64,000 nt of DNA from Halalkalicoccus tibetensis. GTDB taxonomy: Archaea > Halobacteriota > Halobacteria > Halobacteriales > Halalkalicoccaceae. Made by a program: the position numbers and the translations under genes. Location of the stretch: contig NZ_JBBMXV010000004.1 of the NCBI RefSeq assembly GCF_037996645.1, positions 149,684 through 213,683 on the forward strand. The letters run 5' to 3'. This document shows positions 4,970 to 18,755 of the stretch, one piece after another. Below the pieces are notes generated by a model that saw only the letters and a list, made by a program, of their open reading frames with translations, was not told where the DNA came from and did no database searches. Numbering within the stretch: position 1 is the first letter of the stretch; each line of letters begins with the position of its first letter.

Positions 4970-5716
4970 TCACCCCATTCCCGGCGGCGGCCCGCTGTCG
5001 TCGTCGATGTCCACGTCGAGCCCCGCCTCCTCGCGCCGGCGCTGGAGCTCCTGGATCTGCCGGTAGACGTACGCCCCGGCGATCGTCGCGCCGATCGAGG
5101 CGACCACGATCAGTCCGCCGAACAGGTAGACGTCACGTTCCTGGTAGTAGCGCACGGAGATGGCGTCGGCGTCCATCTCGTCCCAGGTGATGTGGGTCTG
5201 GTCGTCGACGACCTCGGTCTCGTGGCCGCCCGGCCGGATGTTCGCGAGCACGAAGTTGTCGACGCGGTAGCCCGGCGGGAGGATCACCTCGTAGGAGCCG
5301 TCGACGAAGGTGTCGGTCGCGAAGTTCCGGGTCTGGGAGTCGGAGGTGAAGGCGAGCTGGCCGTTCTCGGCGGGCAGGTGGACGTAGACCTCGGAACGTG
5401 TCTCCTCGACCTCGATCTCGTCCATCCCTACCACCGTGCCGTCGGGATACCGGAACTGCACCGCCCGGACGTCGATCGGGTTGTCGTCACCGTAGCGCGT
5501 CGACTGATGGAGCCGCACCGTCTCCCGGTCCTCGATCGTGTAGACCGCCTCGTACTCGCCGTCGGTGACCTCGATGGTTCCGTCGGCGTCGGTGTCCCAG
5601 TCGTAGTCGGCGTCCTCCTCGAGCCCCTCCTCGCTGGTCGTCGAACCGAACCCCGCACAGCCGGCCAGAAACAGCAGCGCGACCAGCGAGACCAGCGCGA
5701 GCAGTCGGCGGTTCAT
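4970..5716 (-). CDS. DUF5803 family lipoprotein
   Basis: Starts at MNRRLLALVSLVALLFLAGCAG, a signal peptide with a lipobox-like LAGC (Cys about residue 20). The mature region is acidic and beta-rich, and a single transmembrane helix follows (VYLFGGLIVVASIGATIAGA) before a charged tail ending GPPPGMG. The protein would be anchored at both ends, with most of it outside the cell. This matches the halobacterial DUF5803 family, whose function is unknown. The start overlaps the end of the DUF2110 gene by 4 bases, indicating translational coupling in the tfe operon. Confidence 0.8.
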   Translation of the reverse strand: MNRRLLALVSLVALLFLAGCAGFGSTTSEEGLEEDADYDWDTDADGTIEVTDGEYEAVYTIEDRETVRLHQSTRYGDDNPIDVRAVQFRYPDGTVVGMDEIEVEETRSEVYVHLPAENGQLAFTSDSQTRNFATDTFVDGSYEVILPPGYRVDNFVLANIRPGGHETEVVDDQTHITWDEMDADAISVRYYQERDVYLFGGLIVVASIGATIAGAYVYRQIQELQRRREEAGLDVDIDDDSGPPPGMG

Positions 5717-6390
5717 GAACCGATGACACACCGCAGTTCCGAGGTGAGGTACGGCCCGATCGCCGAGAGCAGCCCCGGCGGGTCGGTCCCCTCACGGCAG
5801 ACGACGCTCTGCTCGAGCAGGCCGAGCCGCTCGACCGTGACGATGTCGTTTGCGTGGCCCGCACGGTTGACAGTCGCGCGCACCTCCCCACGGGTGGCGT
5901 TGTTGACGTTCACCCGGCCGGTACCCCGGGTCCAGTCGTAGAGCCGGTCGCGCTCGGCGTCGGCCAGCCTGGAGGGTTCGTCCCCGTCCCCGTAGACGAA
6001 TCTCATGGGAAGGTGCTGGACGAGGCCGAAGCGCTCGACGAGCTGGGCGGGCCGCCCCTGGCCGAGGCCCAGCTCCCCGGCCGGGATCCGTATCTCGCGG
6101 CCGGCGTCGAGGACGAACCCCTCGTCGTCCCACGACTGTAGCGTGCCGACGTAGCTCTCTCCCTCGGTGAACTCGTCGGTGATCTCGCCCCACTCCTCGC
6201 GCAGCGCGTTGCGGGCGACGGTGGCGTCCTCGCCGTCGACGCTCACGGTGGGGAAGTCGTCGTGGCGAACGCCGACGTCGTACTCCACGTCGAGCTCGCC
6301 GATCGCGTTCTCGACGAGCGACCGGAGCCCGTCGAGCGCCTGCTCGCGCGACTCGCCGTGGACCGTCACCTTGGTTGCGAGGACGACCAT
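5713..6390 (-). CDS. DUF2110 family protein
   Basis: The start at MVVLATKVTVHG (cat at 6388-6390) shares one base with the stop codon of tfe, so translation is probably coupled. The longer in-frame extension runs back inside tfe and is not used. The 225-residue protein matches the archaeal DUF2110 family. It has no transmembrane segment. The central region (VGTLQSWDDEGFVLDAGREI) looks like an OB-fold-type strand pattern. The family is conserved next to TFE in archaea, so a link to transcription or RNA handling is plausible but unproven. Confidence 0.8.
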   Translation of the reverse strand: MVVLATKVTVHGESREQALDGLRSLVENAIGELDVEYDVGVRHDDFPTVSVDGEDATVARNALREEWGEITDEFTEGESYVGTLQSWDDEGFVLDAGREIRIPAGELGLGQGRPAQLVERFGLVQHLPMRFVYGDGDEPSRLADAERDRLYDWTRGTGRVNVNNATRGEVRATVNRAGHANDIVTVERLGLLEQSVVCREGTDPPGLLSAIGPYLTSELRCVIGS

Positions 6391-6914
6391 TAGGCCTCGC
6401 TCTCGACGTTGAGCTCGCCCCGTAGTTCGTCGATCCGGCGTTCCATCGCGTCGACGAGCCTGTCGTTGTCCATCGATTCCAGCGGCGAGCCACACTCGGG
6501 ACACTCGAAGCCGAAGTCCATCGCCTCGCCGAACTCGAAGCGGATCGAGCAGACCTCACAGAGGTAGAACTCGTGGTCGCTCTCGTAGCCCTCGCGGTCC
6601 TCTAGGGCGTCGAGCAGGCGCTCCATCTCCTCGGCCAGGTTCTCCGGGATGTTCTCGTACTCGAAGGTCCACAGGTAGGTCAGCCAGCCCGAGTCCTCGT
6701 CGCGCAGCCGACGGTAGCTCGCGAGGTCGTTCTCGTAGAGGATGAACAGCGCCCGGCGTACGTCGTTGAGCTCCAGGTCGAGCTCCTCGGCGAGCTCCTC
6801 GTCGGTGACCTCCCCGTCGGGCGGCGCGGCGGCGACCGGCATTCCCTTCGGCCCCACCAGCTCGTGCAAATACTTCTGTATGACGGGGTCCTCGAGTAGA
6901 TCCTCAAAAGCCAT
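6390..6914 (-). CDS. tfe: Transcription initiation factor TFE, alpha subunit
   Basis: A 174-residue protein with the two expected parts. The N-terminal extended winged helix spans about residues 1-95 (DEELAEELDLELNDVRRALF, then the arm around YLWTF). The C-terminal zinc ribbon has Cys119, Cys122, Cys138 and Cys141 (CEVC...CPEC). TFE helps TBP and TFB open promoter DNA and stabilises the RNA polymerase open complex. It is the first gene of a four-gene run (tfe, DUF2110, DUF5803, cinA-like). A TATA-like TTAAC box lies 25-30 bases upstream, suggesting a leaderless mRNA. Confidence 0.95.
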   Translation of the reverse strand: MAFEDLLEDPVIQKYLHELVGPKGMPVAAAPPDGEVTDEELAEELDLELNDVRRALFILYENDLASYRRLRDEDSGWLTYLWTFEYENIPENLAEEMERLLDALEDREGYESDHEFYLCEVCSIRFEFGEAMDFGFECPECGSPLESMDNDRLVDAMERRIDELRGELNVESEA

Positions 6915-6938
6915 TAACCGCCATTACATTGCTCCCCG

Positions 6939-6944
6939 GTTAAG
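6939..6944 (-). promoter_or_regulatory. Putative TATA box of the tfe operon
   Basis: CTTAAC on the minus strand, 25-30 bases before the tfe ATG. The spacing fits a leaderless transcript. Confidence 0.45.
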
Positions 6945-7015
6945 TCTTGCCAACTACTCCGTTCTACGGGGCGTGCCTGACGACCCCGATCGTAGGGGAG
7001 GGCTCGTGGACCCGT

Positions 7016-7564
7016 TCACCCCGAGTCGGTAGACTCGACCTTCTTCCCCGTCTCCTGTGGGATCACCCGCTGGTCGGCGTCCTCCCACTCCCGCTCCAGC
7101 TCTCGGCCCTCGAACAGCCGGTCGAGGAACACCGCGAGACCCGCCACCTCCGAGTGGGGCTGGTTGGTGACGCCGACGTTCCAGTCGGCGTGTTCGTAGA
7201 TCCCGAACGGGACCTTCTCGCCGCCGACGACGACGAGGAGGGGCTCACCGGACTCGCCATGGGCCGCGCGGATCTCGCTCTCGACGTCCTGGACCCGCTC
7301 GCCGTACATCGTCAGGTGAACCACGCTCCCCTCCCACCCCCGAACGAGCGCCTTCTGCGAGCTCGAGAGCTCGACCGCGAAGGGGCCGCCGAAGCGGGTC
7401 GTGATGTCCTCGACGGTCTCCTTCGACTGGCCGGCGTTGTCGGGGAGGATCGCCCGGTCGGCGCCGAGCGCGCGGGCCGTGAGCCCGACGTGGGTCGTCA
7501 TCCGCTCGTCGCGGCCCGGCCGGTGGCCCAGCCGGCAGACGGCGACCTCCGGTGTGTCGTGCAT
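7016..7564 (-). CDS. tRNA (cytidine(56)-2'-O)-methyltransferase Trm56
   Basis: A 182-residue SPOUT-class protein. The N terminus, VAVCRLGHRPGRDERMTTHV, is typical of archaeal Trm56, and the knot region carries LLVVVGGEKVPFGIYEHADW and VGVTNQPHSEVAGLAVFLDR. Trm56 methylates the ribose of C56 in the T-loop of tRNAs with S-adenosylmethionine. Length matches the core enzyme. It is divergent from the small membrane gene at 7637, with a 72-base shared intergenic region holding both promoters. Confidence 0.9.
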   Translation of the reverse strand: MHDTPEVAVCRLGHRPGRDERMTTHVGLTARALGADRAILPDNAGQSKETVEDITTRFGGPFAVELSSSQKALVRGWEGSVVHLTMYGERVQDVESEIRAAHGESGEPLLVVVGGEKVPFGIYEHADWNVGVTNQPHSEVAGLAVFLDRLFEGRELEREWEDADQRVIPQETGKKVESTDSG

Positions 7565-7636
7565 GGGACCGATCGGCCCGGCAACGGGTAGGCGGTTTCG
7601 GTTCGGTTTTTACCCCGGCGACGCCAGTGATCGACA

Positions 7637-7855
7637 ATGAGCGCGCTCGATCGTCTCGGCGAGTACGTCCGCGAACACCGCGGGGGACTGCTGACGGATT
7701 TCGTCTTCGCCCTCGCGTGGGTGACGCTGGTCAACGTCATCTTCGTCGTCGTCGACGGCCCCCAGTGGGCCTACTACATGCTCATGCTCGCGGGCGTCCT
7801 CGCGTACTTCGGGTTCGTCTGGAGCCTCGAGATCGCGAGAGAAGGGAGCGGTTAG
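7637..7855 (+). CDS. Small two-helix membrane protein
   Basis: A 72-residue protein with two predicted transmembrane helices (LLTDFVFALAWVTLVNVIFV and YYMLMLAGVLAYFGFVWSL) separated by a short loop with DGPQW. The N terminus is charged. No known family recognised. It converges on and overlaps by 4 bases the stop region of the universal stress gene on the other strand. Confidence 0.7.
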   Translation: MSALDRLGEYVREHRGGLLTDFVFALAWVTLVNVIFVVVDGPQWAYYMLMLAGVLAYFGFVWSLEIAREGSG

Positions 7856-8313
7856 TCGTCCTGGCGGGCGTCGACGACGAGCACGGGTCGGTGGGTCGTC
7901 CGCAGGACCCGTTCGGCGACGCTGCCCAGCAGGACCCGCGAGACGCCGCTGCGGCCGTGCGAGCCCATGACGATCATGTCGGCGTCGTGCTCGTCGGCGT
8001 AGCTCGTGATCACGGTGTGGGGGCGCCCCGCGGCGATATGTTCGACCGTCGGAACGCCGCTTTCCTCGGCGCGCTCGACGACACGGTCGGTCGCATCGCG
8101 GGCCTTCCGTTCGACCTCCTCCATCTCGCCGAACTTGCCGGCCCGGATGCGATCGACCTGTTCGGTGCCGAGGCTGAGGTCCATCGCGTCGGTGTCGACG
8201 ACGTACAGCGTGTGCAGCGTCGCGCCGTACGTCTCGGCGAGATCGATCGCGCGTTCGACCGCCAGTTCCGCGACGTCGCTTCCGTCCGTCGGGACGAGTA
8301 TCGTGTCGTACAT
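7852..8313 (-). CDS. Universal stress protein (UspA family)
   Basis: A 153-residue single-domain Usp. It begins MYDTILVPTDGSDVAELAVE and ends with the ATP-binding signature MGSHGRSGVSRVLLGSVAERVLR (G-2x-G-9x-G-S/T pattern), then RPVLVV. It lies one base beyond the sodium:solute symporter large-subunit gene on the same strand. The pair is frequent in haloarchaeal acetate or solute transport loci, where Usp proteins are thought to modulate the transporter (inference). A second Usp gene is at 55.2 kb. Confidence 0.92.
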   Translation of the reverse strand: MYDTILVPTDGSDVAELAVERAIDLAETYGATLHTLYVVDTDAMDLSLGTEQVDRIRAGKFGEMEEVERKARDATDRVVERAEESGVPTVEHIAAGRPHTVITSYADEHDADMIVMGSHGRSGVSRVLLGSVAERVLRTTHRPVLVVDARQDD

Positions 8314-8314
8314 A

Positions 8315-9982
8315 TCAGTTCTCCGTCTGGGTGTTCGAGACGTCCTCGCCGCCGTCGGTGGCGGCGACCTCTTCGGCGCTCTGCATCCGGCTCATCGGCT
8401 CGGGGCTGTGACACTGGCGGACCAGCCGCTTGACGCGCTCGGGCGGGTCGTCCGTCACGAGCGAGACGCCGATGATGATCGCGAAGACCGTCGGCACGGT
8501 CACCAGCGACGAGGACGTCGCCGGGATCGCGGCCGCGAGCGCGGGGACGAACGGCTCCTCGAGCCCGATCCCCTGTGCGCCGAACTCGTTGACGATCGTC
8601 ACGACCGAGACCGTCAGCCCGAAGACCATGCCGGCGAGCGCTCCTTCCCTCGTCGTGCGCTCCCACCACAGCCCGAGGAAGAAGACGGGGAACATCACGT
8701 TGCCCGCGATCGCGAAGGCCGCCGCGACCAGCGCCGCGATCAGGCCGACGTTTGCGACGCCCGTCAGCGTCACCAGGATGCCGAGGGCGACGATCGTCAC
8801 GCGGCCGACGATGATCTGCTCGCGCTGGCTCGCGTCCTCCTTGTAGAGGTTCGTGTAGATGTCGTGGGCGGCCGCCGAGGAGCCCGAGACGAACAGCCCG
8901 GCGGTCGTCGCGAGCGCCGCGGCGATCGCGCCCGCCGCGACGAGGCCGACGAGCCACTCGGGCAGGCCCGCCAGTTGAGCCGTCAGGACGACGACGACGT
9001 CACCCTGGTCTCCCGAGAACGGGAACTCCAGGCCGGCCGTCTGGTCGAACAGGATGGTCCCGAAGGCGGCGTAGGCGGCGGTGCCCCAGTAGAGCAGGCA
9101 GATGAAGAAGAGCCCCCAGACACAGGACCACCGGGCCGTGCGCTCGTTGTCGACCGTGTAGAACCGAACGAGGACGTGGGGGAGCCCACACGTCCCGAAG
9201 ATCAGCGTGAAGGCCAGCGCGACCCATTCGTAGTAGCCCGCGTTGGCGAAGGGCTCGGTGAACTCGGCGGCGATCATGTCCGAAACGTACGCGGCCTCGG
9301 TGCCGAACTCGAGGAACGGCATCACCGTCGAGTAGCCCTGCGAGAAGCCGACGGCGTACATCCCTGCGATGAACGCTCCGATCAGGATGACGTACTGGAT
9401 GGCCATGTTCTTCGTCGTGCCCAACATTCCCGAGAGCGCGACGTAGATGATCGTGATCGTCATCAGCATGACCACGCCGACCTCGTAGCTGGTGCCGAAG
9501 ACGTACATCGACATCAGCCCCATGCCACGGGCCTGGCTGACGGCGTAGACGTACGCGATGACGATCGTCGTCACCGCCGCGATCGCGCGGCCGGTCTCGG
9601 AGTAGAAGCGGTCGGCGACGAAGTCCGGCGCGGTGTACTTCCCGAACCGGCGGAACTGCGCGGCCAGGAAGATGAGCAGGATGAAGTAGCCCGTCGTCCA
9701 GCCGACGAGATACGCCAGTCCGAAATAGCCGGAGACGGCTATCGTTGCGGCCACGCCGAGGTAGCTCGCCGCGCTCATCCAGTTGGCACCGATCGCCATC
9801 CCGTTTTCGATGTTCCCGATACCGCGACCGGCGACCCAGAGGTCGTCGACGTCGGCGACACGGAAGAACAGCCCGACGCCCAGGAACAGCGCCAGCATGG
9901 CGAAGACGGTGATCGCCGGGATCAGCTTGAACCCGATGTCGAGCCCCTCGGGGATGACCTGTAGCGCCACGGCGTCGATCAT
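8315..9982 (-). CDS. Sodium:solute symporter, large subunit (acetate permease-like)
   Basis: A 555-residue protein with about 13 transmembrane helices of the SSS family (ANWMSAASYLGVAATIAVSG, FGTCGLPHVLVRFYTV, AAAIAAALATTAGLFVSGSS). The similarity is to the ActP/VC_2705 type. It pairs with a DUF4212 small subunit whose stop it overlaps by 4 bases. Acetyl-CoA synthetase genes lie immediately upstream, so acetate or a similar short monocarboxylate is the likely sodium-coupled substrate (inference from context). The C-terminal tail is charged and cytoplasmic. Confidence 0.9.
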   Translation of the reverse strand: MIDAVALQVIPEGLDIGFKLIPAITVFAMLALFLGVGLFFRVADVDDLWVAGRGIGNIENGMAIGANWMSAASYLGVAATIAVSGYFGLAYLVGWTTGYFILLIFLAAQFRRFGKYTAPDFVADRFYSETGRAIAAVTTIVIAYVYAVSQARGMGLMSMYVFGTSYEVGVVMLMTITIIYVALSGMLGTTKNMAIQYVILIGAFIAGMYAVGFSQGYSTVMPFLEFGTEAAYVSDMIAAEFTEPFANAGYYEWVALAFTLIFGTCGLPHVLVRFYTVDNERTARWSCVWGLFFICLLYWGTAAYAAFGTILFDQTAGLEFPFSGDQGDVVVVLTAQLAGLPEWLVGLVAAGAIAAALATTAGLFVSGSSAAAHDIYTNLYKEDASQREQIIVGRVTIVALGILVTLTGVANVGLIAALVAAAFAIAGNVMFPVFFLGLWWERTTREGALAGMVFGLTVSVVTIVNEFGAQGIGLEEPFVPALAAAIPATSSSLVTVPTVFAIIIGVSLVTDDPPERVKRLVRQCHSPEPMSRMQSAEEVAATDGGEDVSNTQTEN

Positions 9983-10446
9983 CGCGTCTCACCGCCGTCG
10001 GATCGCGGCTCCGACGAGGATCCGGAGCCCTCGGCTCCCTCACCGCCGTCGGCCGCCGTGGCCTCTTCGGTGGATTCGGGCTCGGGCTGGCCGTGTTGGA
10101 CGTCATATTTCTCGTCGAGCTTGTCGCGTCGCCAGGCGTAGAACACCGAGAGCAACAGCGCGCCAAGCGGGATCCCGATGGCCGTCACCATGAACAGCGT
10201 CGGGGTGCCCGCGATCCGGTGGGCGTCGGCGGCCTGAGGCGCGATCGCCGCGACCGTCACCGGGCCGAAGACGATCACGATCCAGGCGGCGAACGTCGCC
10301 CAAACCACCTTCAGGTGGTCCCGCATGAACGGGGTTTGGGGCTTGAACAGGTTGATCCGCGTGTCCAAGTAGTTGGCCGTCTGGACGGTCCCGCCGTCGG
10401 GTCTGGTCTCCGCAGGGTCGTCGTCTGAGTCGGGTTCGGTCGACAT
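9979..10446 (-). CDS. DUF4212 sodium:solute symporter small subunit
   Basis: A 155-residue protein with two transmembrane helices (VVWATFAAWIVIVFGPVTVA and LFMVTAIGIPLGALLLSVFY) and the conserved NLFKPQTPFMRDHLKVVW-type region before the first. DUF4212 proteins are small partners of SSS permeases. The C terminus is a long acidic, serine-rich tail (EEATAADGGEGAEGSGSS), usual for halophiles. Stop and start overlap with the large subunit implies co-translation. It is 83 bases downstream of acs. Confidence 0.9.
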   Translation of the reverse strand: MSTEPDSDDDPAETRPDGGTVQTANYLDTRINLFKPQTPFMRDHLKVVWATFAAWIVIVFGPVTVAAIAPQAADAHRIAGTPTLFMVTAIGIPLGALLLSVFYAWRRDKLDEKYDVQHGQPEPESTEEATAADGGEGAEGSGSSSEPRSDGGETR

Positions 10447-16362: not shown

Positions 16363-17127
16363 GTGAGTGTGCAGATCGTGGGCTACGAGTCGGGGGCCGG
16401 AGACGGGGAGCCGGCCCTGCTTCTCGCATGGGAGGGGGCGCTCGAACGCGAGCCGCTGCGCCCGGGCGATCCCCTCGAGTACGCCCTCGGCGAGCGCCGC
16501 TGTGCGGGAACGATCACCGACGAGGGTCATCGAGCGTGCCCGAACTCCGATGCCCCCTACTGCGAGGACCACAGCTACACCTGGGTCTGTGCGCGCTGTA
16601 CGGGCACCTGCCTGAAGGACCAGATGGACTGTTTCGAGGAGCACGCGGTCTACCTCGCCGCCTTCGCCCCGGCGACGTTCAAGGTCGGCGTCACCAAGGC
16701 GTGGCGCCTCGAGACCCGCCTGCGCGAGCAGGGCGCCGACCGCGCGGCCCACCTCCACACGGTGTCGAACGGCCGGATCGCCCGCGAGATCGAGAGCGAG
16801 ATCGCCCGCGAGGTCGGCGACAGCGTGCGCGTCCCGACGAAGATCCGCGGGCTGGCCGCCCCGGTCGACGCCGCGGCCTGGGACGCGCTCGTGGGGGAGT
16901 ACGATCCCATCGAGACGTTCGCCTTCGAGTACGGCCTCGCGCTCACCGAGCGCCCGGTCCGGGAGACGATCGCGAGCGGAACGGTTCTGGGAACCAAGGG
17001 GAGGGTCCTGGTGCTCGAACGCGGCGCGACGACCTACGCGGTCGACATGCGCGACCTCGTGGGCTACGAGGTCCGCGAGGGCACGAGCGATCGCGCGCTC
17101 CAGTCGAGCCTGGGCGCGTTCGGCTGA
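16363..17127 (+). CDS. DUF2797 family protein
   Basis: A GTG start at 16363 gives MSVQIVGYESG; the open frame extends far upstream only because the opposite-strand acs gene has no stops in that frame. The product is 254 residues. Cysteines (RRC...RACPNSDAPYCEDH...CARCTGTCLKD) suggest a zinc-binding module, and the core FAPATFKVGVTKAWRLETRL resembles a GIY-YIG-like fold described for DUF2797. Function unknown. Its TGA stop lies inside the 8-base target duplication of the insertion that follows. Confidence 0.82.
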   Translation: MSVQIVGYESGAGDGEPALLLAWEGALEREPLRPGDPLEYALGERRCAGTITDEGHRACPNSDAPYCEDHSYTWVCARCTGTCLKDQMDCFEEHAVYLAAFAPATFKVGVTKAWRLETRLREQGADRAAHLHTVSNGRIAREIESEIAREVGDSVRVPTKIRGLAAPVDAAAWDALVGEYDPIETFAFEYGLALTERPVRETIASGTVLGTKGRVLVLERGATTYAVDMRDLVGYEVREGTSDRALQSSLGAFG

Positions 17128-17130
17128 AAT
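17123..17130 (+). repeat. Target-site duplication, left copy (GCTGAAAT)
   Basis: GCTGAAAT directly abuts the left inverted repeat and is repeated exactly at 18748-18755 next to the right one. Confidence 0.8.
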
Positions 17131-17147
17131 GGCTCCGTTGAAATGCT
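17131..17147 (+). repeat. Left terminal inverted repeat
   Basis: GGCTCCGTTGAAATGCT, matching the right terminus in inverted orientation at 14 of 17 positions. Confidence 0.7.
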
Positions 17148-17353
17148 CTACAGATGATCTATTAGAGATACCCAGCGTTACATACAGGAGAAGGAAGTAA
17201 CGGGACAGCAATCAACCTCACCGGTAGCTGGCAAGAACAGCATGCGAGGTACAGAGTATGAGTTCAGCACAACTACTTCGCTCGTTTCGAGCGGATCTAG
17301 TAATCTAACAACCACTATTCAGTAAATTCATCTGTGTAATTATATACCATGTC

Positions 17354-17362
17354 ATAATATAT
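17354..17362 (+). promoter_or_regulatory. TATA-like box inside the insertion
   Basis: ATAATATAT lies 28-36 bases before the ATG of the AlbA/Schlafen gene. A second AT-rich box (AATTATATA) is at 17338-17346. The cargo gene thus seems to carry its own promoter. Confidence 0.45.
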
Positions 17363-17389
17363 GCTGTGGATCCCAACAGATGATAGGAT

Positions 17390-18589
17390 ATGCTCACAGA
17401 AGACTGGGAGGAACTTTCCATTGAGACTCTTATTCGAGCTATAGAAAACGGGTACTCAGAAGGAAAGGAGCTTGAATTCAAACGTCAGCAAAACCCGGAT
17501 GAAGTAGGCCACAAACAGACGACAGTTGGAGAGGTGATTTCGTTCGCAAACGCGAGTGGCGGTGATCTCGTCATTGGGATGGCCGAGGATGAAGGAGTAG
17601 CATCCGGACTCTGGCCAGTCCAGTATGACGATGTTGACGATGAGAAGAATCGTTGGATTGATATTATTAAACGGAATACAGATCCGGAACTTCCACAACA
17701 TCTCATCGACATTAAACCCGTGGAGGTCACAGACGACTATGCGGAATATGTTGATGACGACTGTCCATTACAAACAGGTTATGTTCTCGTAACCCGAGTC
17801 CAACGCAGTTGGCGAGCCCCACACCGGGAGACACTGAAACACCAGTTTTATGAACGGAGTTCAGGAGGGAAGACCGAGTTAGATACTGGGGCAATTCGAC
17901 AGGCAATGTTCCAAGGCGAATTACTCACCGAAAGGGCGCGCGAGTTTCGTGATAATCGGCTTGCTGCAATCCGTGCTGATGATGTGACGGTACGGATGAA
18001 GTCTGACCCGAAAATGGTCCTCCATGTCGTTCCGAGTAATGCCTTCTCTCTTGAACGCTTGATCGATCCGTCTGCTGCGGCTCCAGACCAAGCAGATCAG
18101 GATGTTCCTTCTCTTCTGCATCCAAGAGGAATTATTGGTAACTGGACACGGTATACTGCTGATGGCTTTCTTCGTGCACAAACTGATTCGGAAGACTGGT
18201 GTACGAGTTATACGTTAACGTTCCGTTCTGGCGTCATCGAGGCACTAACTACAAATTCGTATATCGAGGACTCTGAATACATTTCTTCGGGGCACGTTCG
18301 GAACTGTCTGGAAGAGGGACTTCCAACATACGAGGAGTTCCTAGTTCATCAAGGCGGTACGTATCCAATATACTGTTTCTTAAGCGTACTCGGGGGGCAG
18401 GGACTTCCAGTACAGGAAACTTCCCATCGAAAACCTGATGATCTGGAGAGGATTGACCGAGATGTGGCTCAATTACCAGCAGTTCGGATTGAGTCCTCCC
18501 AGACCGATCTCGGTACTATAATCAATGAACTGCTTGATTCCTTATATAATGCGAGCGGAAGGGCTCAGGAGATGAGATCTGAGGATTGA
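17390..18589 (+). CDS. AlbA_2/Schlafen-domain putative ATP-binding protein (cargo)
   Basis: A 399-residue protein of markedly lower GC content than its neighbours. Residues about 10-65 hold the AlbA_2 (Schlafen-type) signature: EGKELEFKRQ, then VISFANASGGDLVIGMAEDE. This domain occurs in putative transcriptional regulators and in nucleases linked to phage defence. The C-terminal 250 residues match no domain I can name; they contain VTVRMKSDPKMVLHVVPSNA and a late LPAVRIESSQTDLGTIINEL. It is the sole gene of a transposon-like insertion. A regulatory or antiviral role is only a guess. Confidence 0.75.
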   Translation: MLTEDWEELSIETLIRAIENGYSEGKELEFKRQQNPDEVGHKQTTVGEVISFANASGGDLVIGMAEDEGVASGLWPVQYDDVDDEKNRWIDIIKRNTDPELPQHLIDIKPVEVTDDYAEYVDDDCPLQTGYVLVTRVQRSWRAPHRETLKHQFYERSSGGKTELDTGAIRQAMFQGELLTERAREFRDNRLAAIRADDVTVRMKSDPKMVLHVVPSNAFSLERLIDPSAAAPDQADQDVPSLLHPRGIIGNWTRYTADGFLRAQTDSEDWCTSYTLTFRSGVIEALTTNSYIEDSEYISSGHVRNCLEEGLPTYEEFLVHQGGTYPIYCFLSVLGGQGLPVQETSHRKPDDLERIDRDVAQLPAVRIESSQTDLGTIINELLDSLYNASGRAQEMRSED

Positions 18590-18730
18590 GTATAGTTTTC
18601 GGTTGTGCTGCATTTGCGCGCTGTATTCAGTACAACTCTATTAATATCACTAATAACTGACAGAAGAACTTGTGTTAGATTCGCACGAACTACCTAACGG
18701 TTGTTTCGGTAGCGAGGATGTCGAATTAAT

Positions 18731-18747
18731 AGAATTTCCACAGAGCC
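18731..18747 (-). repeat. Right terminal inverted repeat
   Basis: AGAATTTCCACAGAGCC on the plus strand; its complement GGCTCTGTGGAAATTCT matches the left terminus. Confidence 0.7.
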
Positions 18748-18755
18748 GCTGAAAT
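18748..18755 (+). repeat. Target-site duplication, right copy (GCTGAAAT)
   Basis: Exact copy of 17123-17130, immediately outside the right inverted repeat and five bases from the stop codon of the next gene. Confidence 0.8.

What the first reader, a model, noticed from the sequence alone, without database searches (positions are those of the whole stretch)
17123..18755. Transposase-less mobile element with exact 8-base target duplication
GCTGAAAT flanks a 1617-base AT-rich block on both sides. The block's ends are 17-base imperfect inverted repeats (GGCTCCGTTGAAATGCT and GGCTCTGTGGAAATTCT). No transposase is inside, so mobilisation must come from elsewhere. The left duplication contains the TGA stop of the DUF2797 gene, and removing the insert restores two convergent genes with their stop codons seven bases apart.
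Basis: partly seen in the sequence, partly recalled or inferred. Interest (0 to 1): 0.78.

Follow-up and report, generated by a model that had tools for sequence, protein, structure and literature searches.

The report
Transposase-less haloarchaeal cassette carrying Schlafen gene
A 1.6-kb jumping cassette without its own jumping enzyme sits between two housekeeping genes of a salt-loving archaeon, carries one probable antiviral (Schlafen-type) nuclease gene, and belongs to a large family of such gene cassettes whose ends match those of an IS5-type insertion sequence found across the whole order.

Summary
A 1,617-bp block (17131-18747, 47% GC against 67%) is flanked by GCTGAAAT on both sides, its ends match at 14 of 17 bases, and it encodes no transposase. 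Three same-genus genomes have the same convergent gene pair without the block. A consensus of that end occurs in 156 of 392 genomes (48 of 95 genera) of the order. Pairing ends by flanks gave 15 transposase-bearing and 11 transposase-less elements with exact 8-bp duplications (no hits in shifted controls), plus three MITEs in the host genome. Most transposase-bearing copies also carry an unrelated gene: a transporter-IS / mobile-insertion-cassette family. The cargo here is a 399-aa SLFN_AlbA_2 protein that keeps two of the three Schlafen catalytic acids; relatives lie beside restriction and TIR genes, so an antiviral RNase is likely (untested). The host assembly has no intact transposase of the matching clade; a same-genus genome has one. 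Real, of a known kind (MIC), but from an IS group I did not find described as carrying cargo.

The parts
17123..17130 (.). left target-site duplication GCTGAAAT; contains the TGA stop of the DUF2797 gene
17131..17147 (+). left terminal inverted repeat GGCTCCGTTGAAATGCT
17131..17280 (+). left subterminal region; first 57 bp 93% identical to host contig C6:201015 and 77-83% to ends in sister genomes; inner part related to a repeat found in 23 of 293 genomes
17390..18589 (+). cargo gene, 399-aa SLFN_AlbA_2 (Schlafen-type) protein; E24 invariant, E29 E or D in homologues
18590..18747 (-). right subterminal region; last 55-75 bp is the transposase-distal end of ISHla2-type IS5 elements
18731..18747 (-). 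right terminal inverted repeat GGCTCTGTGGAAATTCT
18748..18755 (.). right target-site duplication GCTGAAAT
16366..17127 (+). flanking host gene, DUF2797 PF10977
18760..19668 (-). flanking host gene, 3-hydroxyisobutyrate dehydrogenase type (PF03446, PF14833)

Best explanation
The block is a non-autonomous DNA transposon of the mobile-insertion-cassette (MIC) kind. An IS5-family DDE transposase of the ISHla2-type group, made by another element in the same or a donor cell, recognised the two GGCTCTGTTGAAATCCT-type ends, moved everything between them and joined it into an 8-bp staggered cut at the junction of two convergent genes; repair of the cut made the GCTGAAAT repeats. Shown: duplication, ends, empty sites in relatives, a family of like elements with and without transposase. 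Inferred: which enzyme acted and that it acted in trans. The cargo is most likely a Schlafen-type metal-dependent RNase used in antiviral defence, so the cassette probably spreads a single-gene defence module (inferred from fold, conserved acids and gene neighbours; untested).
For: Exact TSD and ends. Empty convergent pair in three same-genus genomes. The right end aligns well with distal ends of transposase-bearing elements G185, G189, G003 and G096. The transposases score as IS5 above the curated cut-off (NF033579, E 1.5e-65) and are 81% identical to ISHla2, whose own ends are of this type. 13 of 63 TSD pairs against 0 of 1512 controls, and 10 further exact TSD pairs with no control hits. 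Ten other transposase-less elements of 0.4 to 5 kb, most with different cargo genes. Three MITEs with exact TSDs in the host genome. Cargo: SLFN profile and PDB relatives CbCash, SLFN11, Schlafen 8, fold match to SLFN13 N-domain, conserved E24/E29; homologues sit beside Eco57I, GmrSD, TIR and HsdR genes.
Against: No intact transposase of the matching clade in the 97%-complete host assembly: one copy has an internal stop (C6:113728-114489) and the intact one (C6:100355-101173) lies between different ends, GGCCTTGTTGAAACCCT. The block's left end is only loosely like any other end. The block is single-copy and no second genome was found with the same cassette, so movement was not observed. In the larger anchor set 47 of 60 ends had no duplicated partner. 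The structure model has modest confidence (pLDDT 70.5; whole-chain TM-scores about 0.2).
Confidence: 0.85

Rival explanations
1. It is a decayed autonomous transporter IS: once transposase plus Schlafen passenger, it lost the transposase by internal deletion and is now a fossil.
For: Most transposase-bearing members carry one passenger gene between transposase and distal end; the host has only disrupted or partial clade-A transposases.
Against: No transposase remnant in the block; the left end is not the transposase-proximal end type; other cassettes lack the gene entirely yet have intact cargo and exact TSDs, so loss, if any, precedes the last move.
Confidence: 0.3
2. The mobilising enzyme was an IS6-family transposase, which also makes 8-bp duplications and has similar GGNNCTGTT ends.
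For: 8-bp duplication is the rule in IS6 (PMC7986276); the end sequence resembles IS6 ends (from memory).
Against: No IS6 DDE (PF13610) hit in the host genome; IS6-like hits in relatives do not lie in elements with paired ends of this type; every transposase found between these ends is IS5.
Confidence: 0.03
3. The block was moved by its own Schlafen protein acting as a recombinase.
For: It is the only gene inside.
Against: Other elements with such ends and 8-bp TSDs carry unrelated genes (HNH, HAD, zinc ribbon, membrane proteins); homologues of the Schlafen gene occur without such ends.
Confidence: 0.01
4. The cargo is not a defence nuclease but an AlbA_2-type regulator or nucleic-acid-binding protein.
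For: SLFN_AlbA_2 domains also occur in regulators (general knowledge); no PADLOC model hits the protein; the third catalytic acid varies among homologues.
Against: E24 is invariant and E29 is E or D, at the positions of the first two catalytic acids; the best solved relatives are Schlafens; neighbours of homologues are restriction and TIR genes.
Confidence: 0.3

Closest known systems
Mobile insertion cassettes (MIC231 of Bacillus cereus; term used in PMC3129680 and PMC6542083)
   Same: IS ends bounding a passenger gene, no transposase, mobilised by a related IS
   Different: IS5-family ends instead of the IS231 type; archaeal; many different cargos in one order; trans-mobilisation not shown here
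IS5 family, ISHla2-type elements of haloarchaea
   Same: GGCTCTGTTGAAATCCT-type ends, 8-bp duplications, distal-end sequence
   Different: no transposase; different left subterminal region; a 1.2-kb cargo gene
Transporter ISs (tIS)
   Same: passenger genes unrelated to transposition between IS ends
   Different: tIS keep the transposase; this block does not, though its relatives do
Haloarchaeal MITEs (Haloquadratum walsbyi, PMC3119063)
   Same: transposase-free, ends and duplication length set by a transposon
   Different: MITEs there are at most about 520 bp and only the ISH2-type one has a likely coding ORF; this block carries a full gene
Schlafen / CbCash proteins
   Same: SLFN_AlbA_2 core with the first two catalytic acids
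   Different: about 230 C-terminal residues without a named domain; activity untested

Membership tests
Mobile insertion cassette (MIC) | no transposase gene between IS-type ends | tested here: met
Mobile insertion cassette (MIC) | carries a passenger gene | tested here: met
Mobile insertion cassette (MIC) | target duplication of the length made by the cognate IS | tested here: met
   8 bp
Mobile insertion cassette (MIC) | moved in trans by the cognate transposase | not testable with these tools
   needs a transposition assay
IS5 family (full member) | encodes an IS5 transposase | tested here: not met
   so it is a derivative, not an IS
IS5-derived, ISHla2-type ends | terminal and subterminal sequence shared with transposase-bearing copies | tested here: met
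   right end strongly, left end only over about 17 bp
MITE | short and non-coding | tested here: not met
   1617 bp with a 399-aa ORF
IS6-derived element | ends shared with an IS6 transposase-bearing element | tested here: not met
Schlafen-type nuclease | SLFN_AlbA_2 domain | tested here: met
   PF04326 above cut-off
Schlafen-type nuclease | three catalytic acids | tested here: inconclusive
   E24 kept, E29 E/D; third (E66) varies in homologues
Schlafen-type nuclease | RNA cleavage | not testable with these tools
   needs biochemistry

The most novel reading that the evidence does not exclude
ISHla2-type IS5 ends form an order-wide gene-shuttling system in haloarchaea: one transposase group with a variable cargo slot, plus many transposase-less one-gene cassettes, moving defence and metabolic genes between chromosomes, plasmids and proviruses, with genes captured between the ends again and again.
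Probability: 0.45. Interest if true: 0.7.

Novelty: new variant of a known kind. Interest (0 to 1): 0.5.

Why it matters
Cargo-bearing transposase-less elements have hardly been described in archaea (in Haloquadratum only the ISH2-type one has a likely coding ORF, PMC3119063). If one IS5 group shuttles single genes, defence genes included, across half the genera sampled, it would explain part of the patchy gene content of haloarchaea. It also gives a way to find small cassettes that annotation misses, and a defined pair of ends for testing trans-mobilisation in laboratory strains.

Tried and rejected
IS6 as the mobilising family (my first guess from the end sequence): PF13610 gave nothing in the host, and hits in relatives lay in elements without such paired ends. 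Long terminal inverted repeats of about 140 bp: a global alignment of the two ends beyond the first 17 bp scored within the shuffle range. A genome-collection scan with the cargo as a single protein found no relatives; the six-frame search did. Cargo homologues do not sit between such ends, so the Schlafen gene could not be followed as a moving unit. Solo ends in the host and sister genomes (L172-L181) gave no duplicated partner within 9 kb. Viral contigs hold no close relative of the transposase; of seven contigs with the exact end only one (L224) has a paired element. Literature: no paper in the held library names ISHla2 or haloarchaeal IS5 cargo carriage, and the end sequence turned up only in unrelated papers. 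ISfinder could not be consulted.

Full report
Observation. The block 17131-18747 (1617 bp) is bounded by GCTGAAAT at 17123-17130 and 18748-18755, with terminal repeats identical at 14 of 17 positions. It has 46.8% GC against 67.0% for the rest of the window. Its only large ORF is 17390-18589 (399 aa), SLFN_AlbA_2 (PF04326, E 3.5e-14). The flanking genes are DUF2797 and a 3-hydroxyisobutyrate dehydrogenase.

Empty site. In three same-genus genomes (G003, G004, G006) the DUF2797 gene is followed within a few to about 20 bases by the same convergent dehydrogenase, without the block. The absence in three relatives together with the flanking duplication points to insertion in the window's lineage.

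The ends are a family. In the host genome the end pattern recurs as paired 124-125-bp MITEs, three with exact 8-bp duplications and one with a single mismatch, and as single ends. The first 57 bases of the left end recur at 93% identity at C6:201015. The last 55-75 bases of the right end recur across the order: matches to the right 158 bases in 49 of 293 genomes, and matches to a 65-base consensus that I composed from observed ends in 156 of 392 genomes and 48 of 95 genera.

Pairing by duplication. Among loci chosen for containing such ends, 13 of 63 inward-facing end pairs had identical 8-bp flanks, none in 1512 register-shifted comparisons. In 60 further loci anchored on the consensus end, ten had an exact duplicated partner, with no hit in three shifted registers of 3730 candidate pairs. 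Counting each element once (my tally), I find 15 with a transposase and exact TSD, 11 of 400 bp or more without a transposase and with exact TSD (this block, L074, L144, L145, L151, L162, L183, L224, L248, L285, L291), and three MITEs. This is a tally of selected loci, not a census. Many single ends (47 of 60) have no duplicated partner, as expected of old or rearranged copies.

The autonomous partner. The transposases between these ends are IS5 family by NCBIfam (NF033579, 221.6 bits, cut-off 140) and Pfam DDE_Tnp_1. The nearest named relative found is ISHla2 of Halorubrum lacusprofundi plasmid pHLAC01, 81% identical, whose ends are GGCTCTGTTGAAATCCT and GGCTTTGTTGAAATCCTATT. The block's right end aligns best with one end of G130 (itself transposase-less) and then with the transposase-distal ends of G185, G189, G003 and G096. 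Its left end resembles other cassette ends only loosely. The host assembly holds a clade-A transposase gene with an internal stop (C6:113728-114489), and an intact one of another clade within a 2547-bp element (L184 5682-8228) with TSD GATCTGGC and different ends. A same-genus genome (G003) holds an intact clade-A enzyme, 92% identical to the query enzyme. The trans-acting enzyme is therefore inferred, and may no longer be present in this host.

Cargo carriage is general. Transposase-bearing copies usually carry one more gene between the transposase and the distal end: redoxin (G007), RibD_C (G189), methyltransferase (G185; L280 by eye), a GNAT-like gene (L266, by eye), phosphate transporter PHO4 (host L184) and small membrane proteins or lipoproteins. 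Transposase-less ones carry an HTH gene plus DUF7521 (G042), zinc ribbon (G168), HAD plus FilR1 regulator (G130), GIDE (G275), TrmB, Panacea and a DpdA-like TGT (G134), and HNH (L224, on an IMG/VR contig beside an integrase gene). In the papers I could read, transporter ISs and MICs are known kinds (PMC3129680, PMC6542083, PMC7986276), and coding transposase-free elements in haloarchaea are rare (PMC3119063).

The cargo protein. Homologues were found in other genera (58% to 28% identity) and on IMG/VR contigs. A profile of the family matches CbCash (E 2.5e-5), SLFN11 and Schlafen 8. E24 and E29 align with the two glutamates of the Schlafen ExxxxE motif; E24 is invariant and E29 is E or D in all complete rows, while the third acid varies. 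An AlphaFold model (pLDDT 70.5) matches the SLFN13 N-domain best, with low whole-chain TM-score, so only the core is supported. The nearest archaeal homologue lies beside Eco57I-type and GmrSD restriction genes and a trypsin-like protein with a PADLOC candidate hit; three contig homologues (L233-L235) follow a TIR gene (tested for L233, by eye for the others) and precede an HsdR-type gene. PMC12839542 reports that several Schlafen-linked prokaryotic systems act in anti-phage defence through tRNA cleavage. A defence RNase is thus the best guess, not shown. PADLOC has no model for the protein itself.

Mechanism, step by step. Shown: insertion with 8-bp duplication; ends of an IS5 group; absence of transposase; relatives with transposase. 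Inferred: transposase in trans, cutting at both ends, joining to a staggered 8-bp target; spread of the gene as cargo. Not known: whether cassettes arise by loss of the transposase or by capture of genes between two ends; whether this copy can still move.

Verdict. Real, explained, and a good example of a mobile insertion cassette. The single insertion is of modest interest; the family behind it, an IS5 group with a variable cargo slot in half the genera sampled, is the part worth following.

Noticed in passing
L184 5682-8228 (host contig C6:98681-101227): An intact 2547-bp relative in the host genome with TSD GATCTGGC, an IS5 transposase of another clade and a PHO4 phosphate transporter as passenger.
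   Followed up: partly
L224 9928-10843 (IMGVR_UViG_2554235474_000003): A 916-bp transposase-less element with TSD TGGTACTC and an HNH endonuclease gene on a viral or proviral contig, at the end of an integrase gene.
   Followed up: partly
L162 7062-12152: A 5.1-kb transposase-less element with TSD ATTTATCC carrying a DpdA-like TGT, a TrmB regulator and a Panacea-domain gene, so cassettes can hold several genes.
   Followed up: partly
window 17228-17280 and L041, L044, L070, L071, L077-L080, L084, L087: A motif near GTGCGAGATACAGAGGATGAGTTCAGCACGAC recurs in intergenic regions of many haloarchaeal genomes, sometimes next to GGCTCTGTTGAAAT-type ends; its role is unknown.
   Followed up: partly
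L233, L234, L235 around 5400-10300: Schlafen homologues sit directly after a TIR or TIR-like gene and before an HsdR-type gene, a possible accessory defence module.
   Followed up: partly
L009, L043, L045: Single 57-bp left ends without a partner; L009 (host) and L043 (G006) also share flanking sequence, suggesting an old insertion common to the genus.
   Followed up: no
L004, L006, L008, L012 (host genome): Four 124-125-bp MITEs with ends of this type, three with exact 8-bp duplications.
   Followed up: partly
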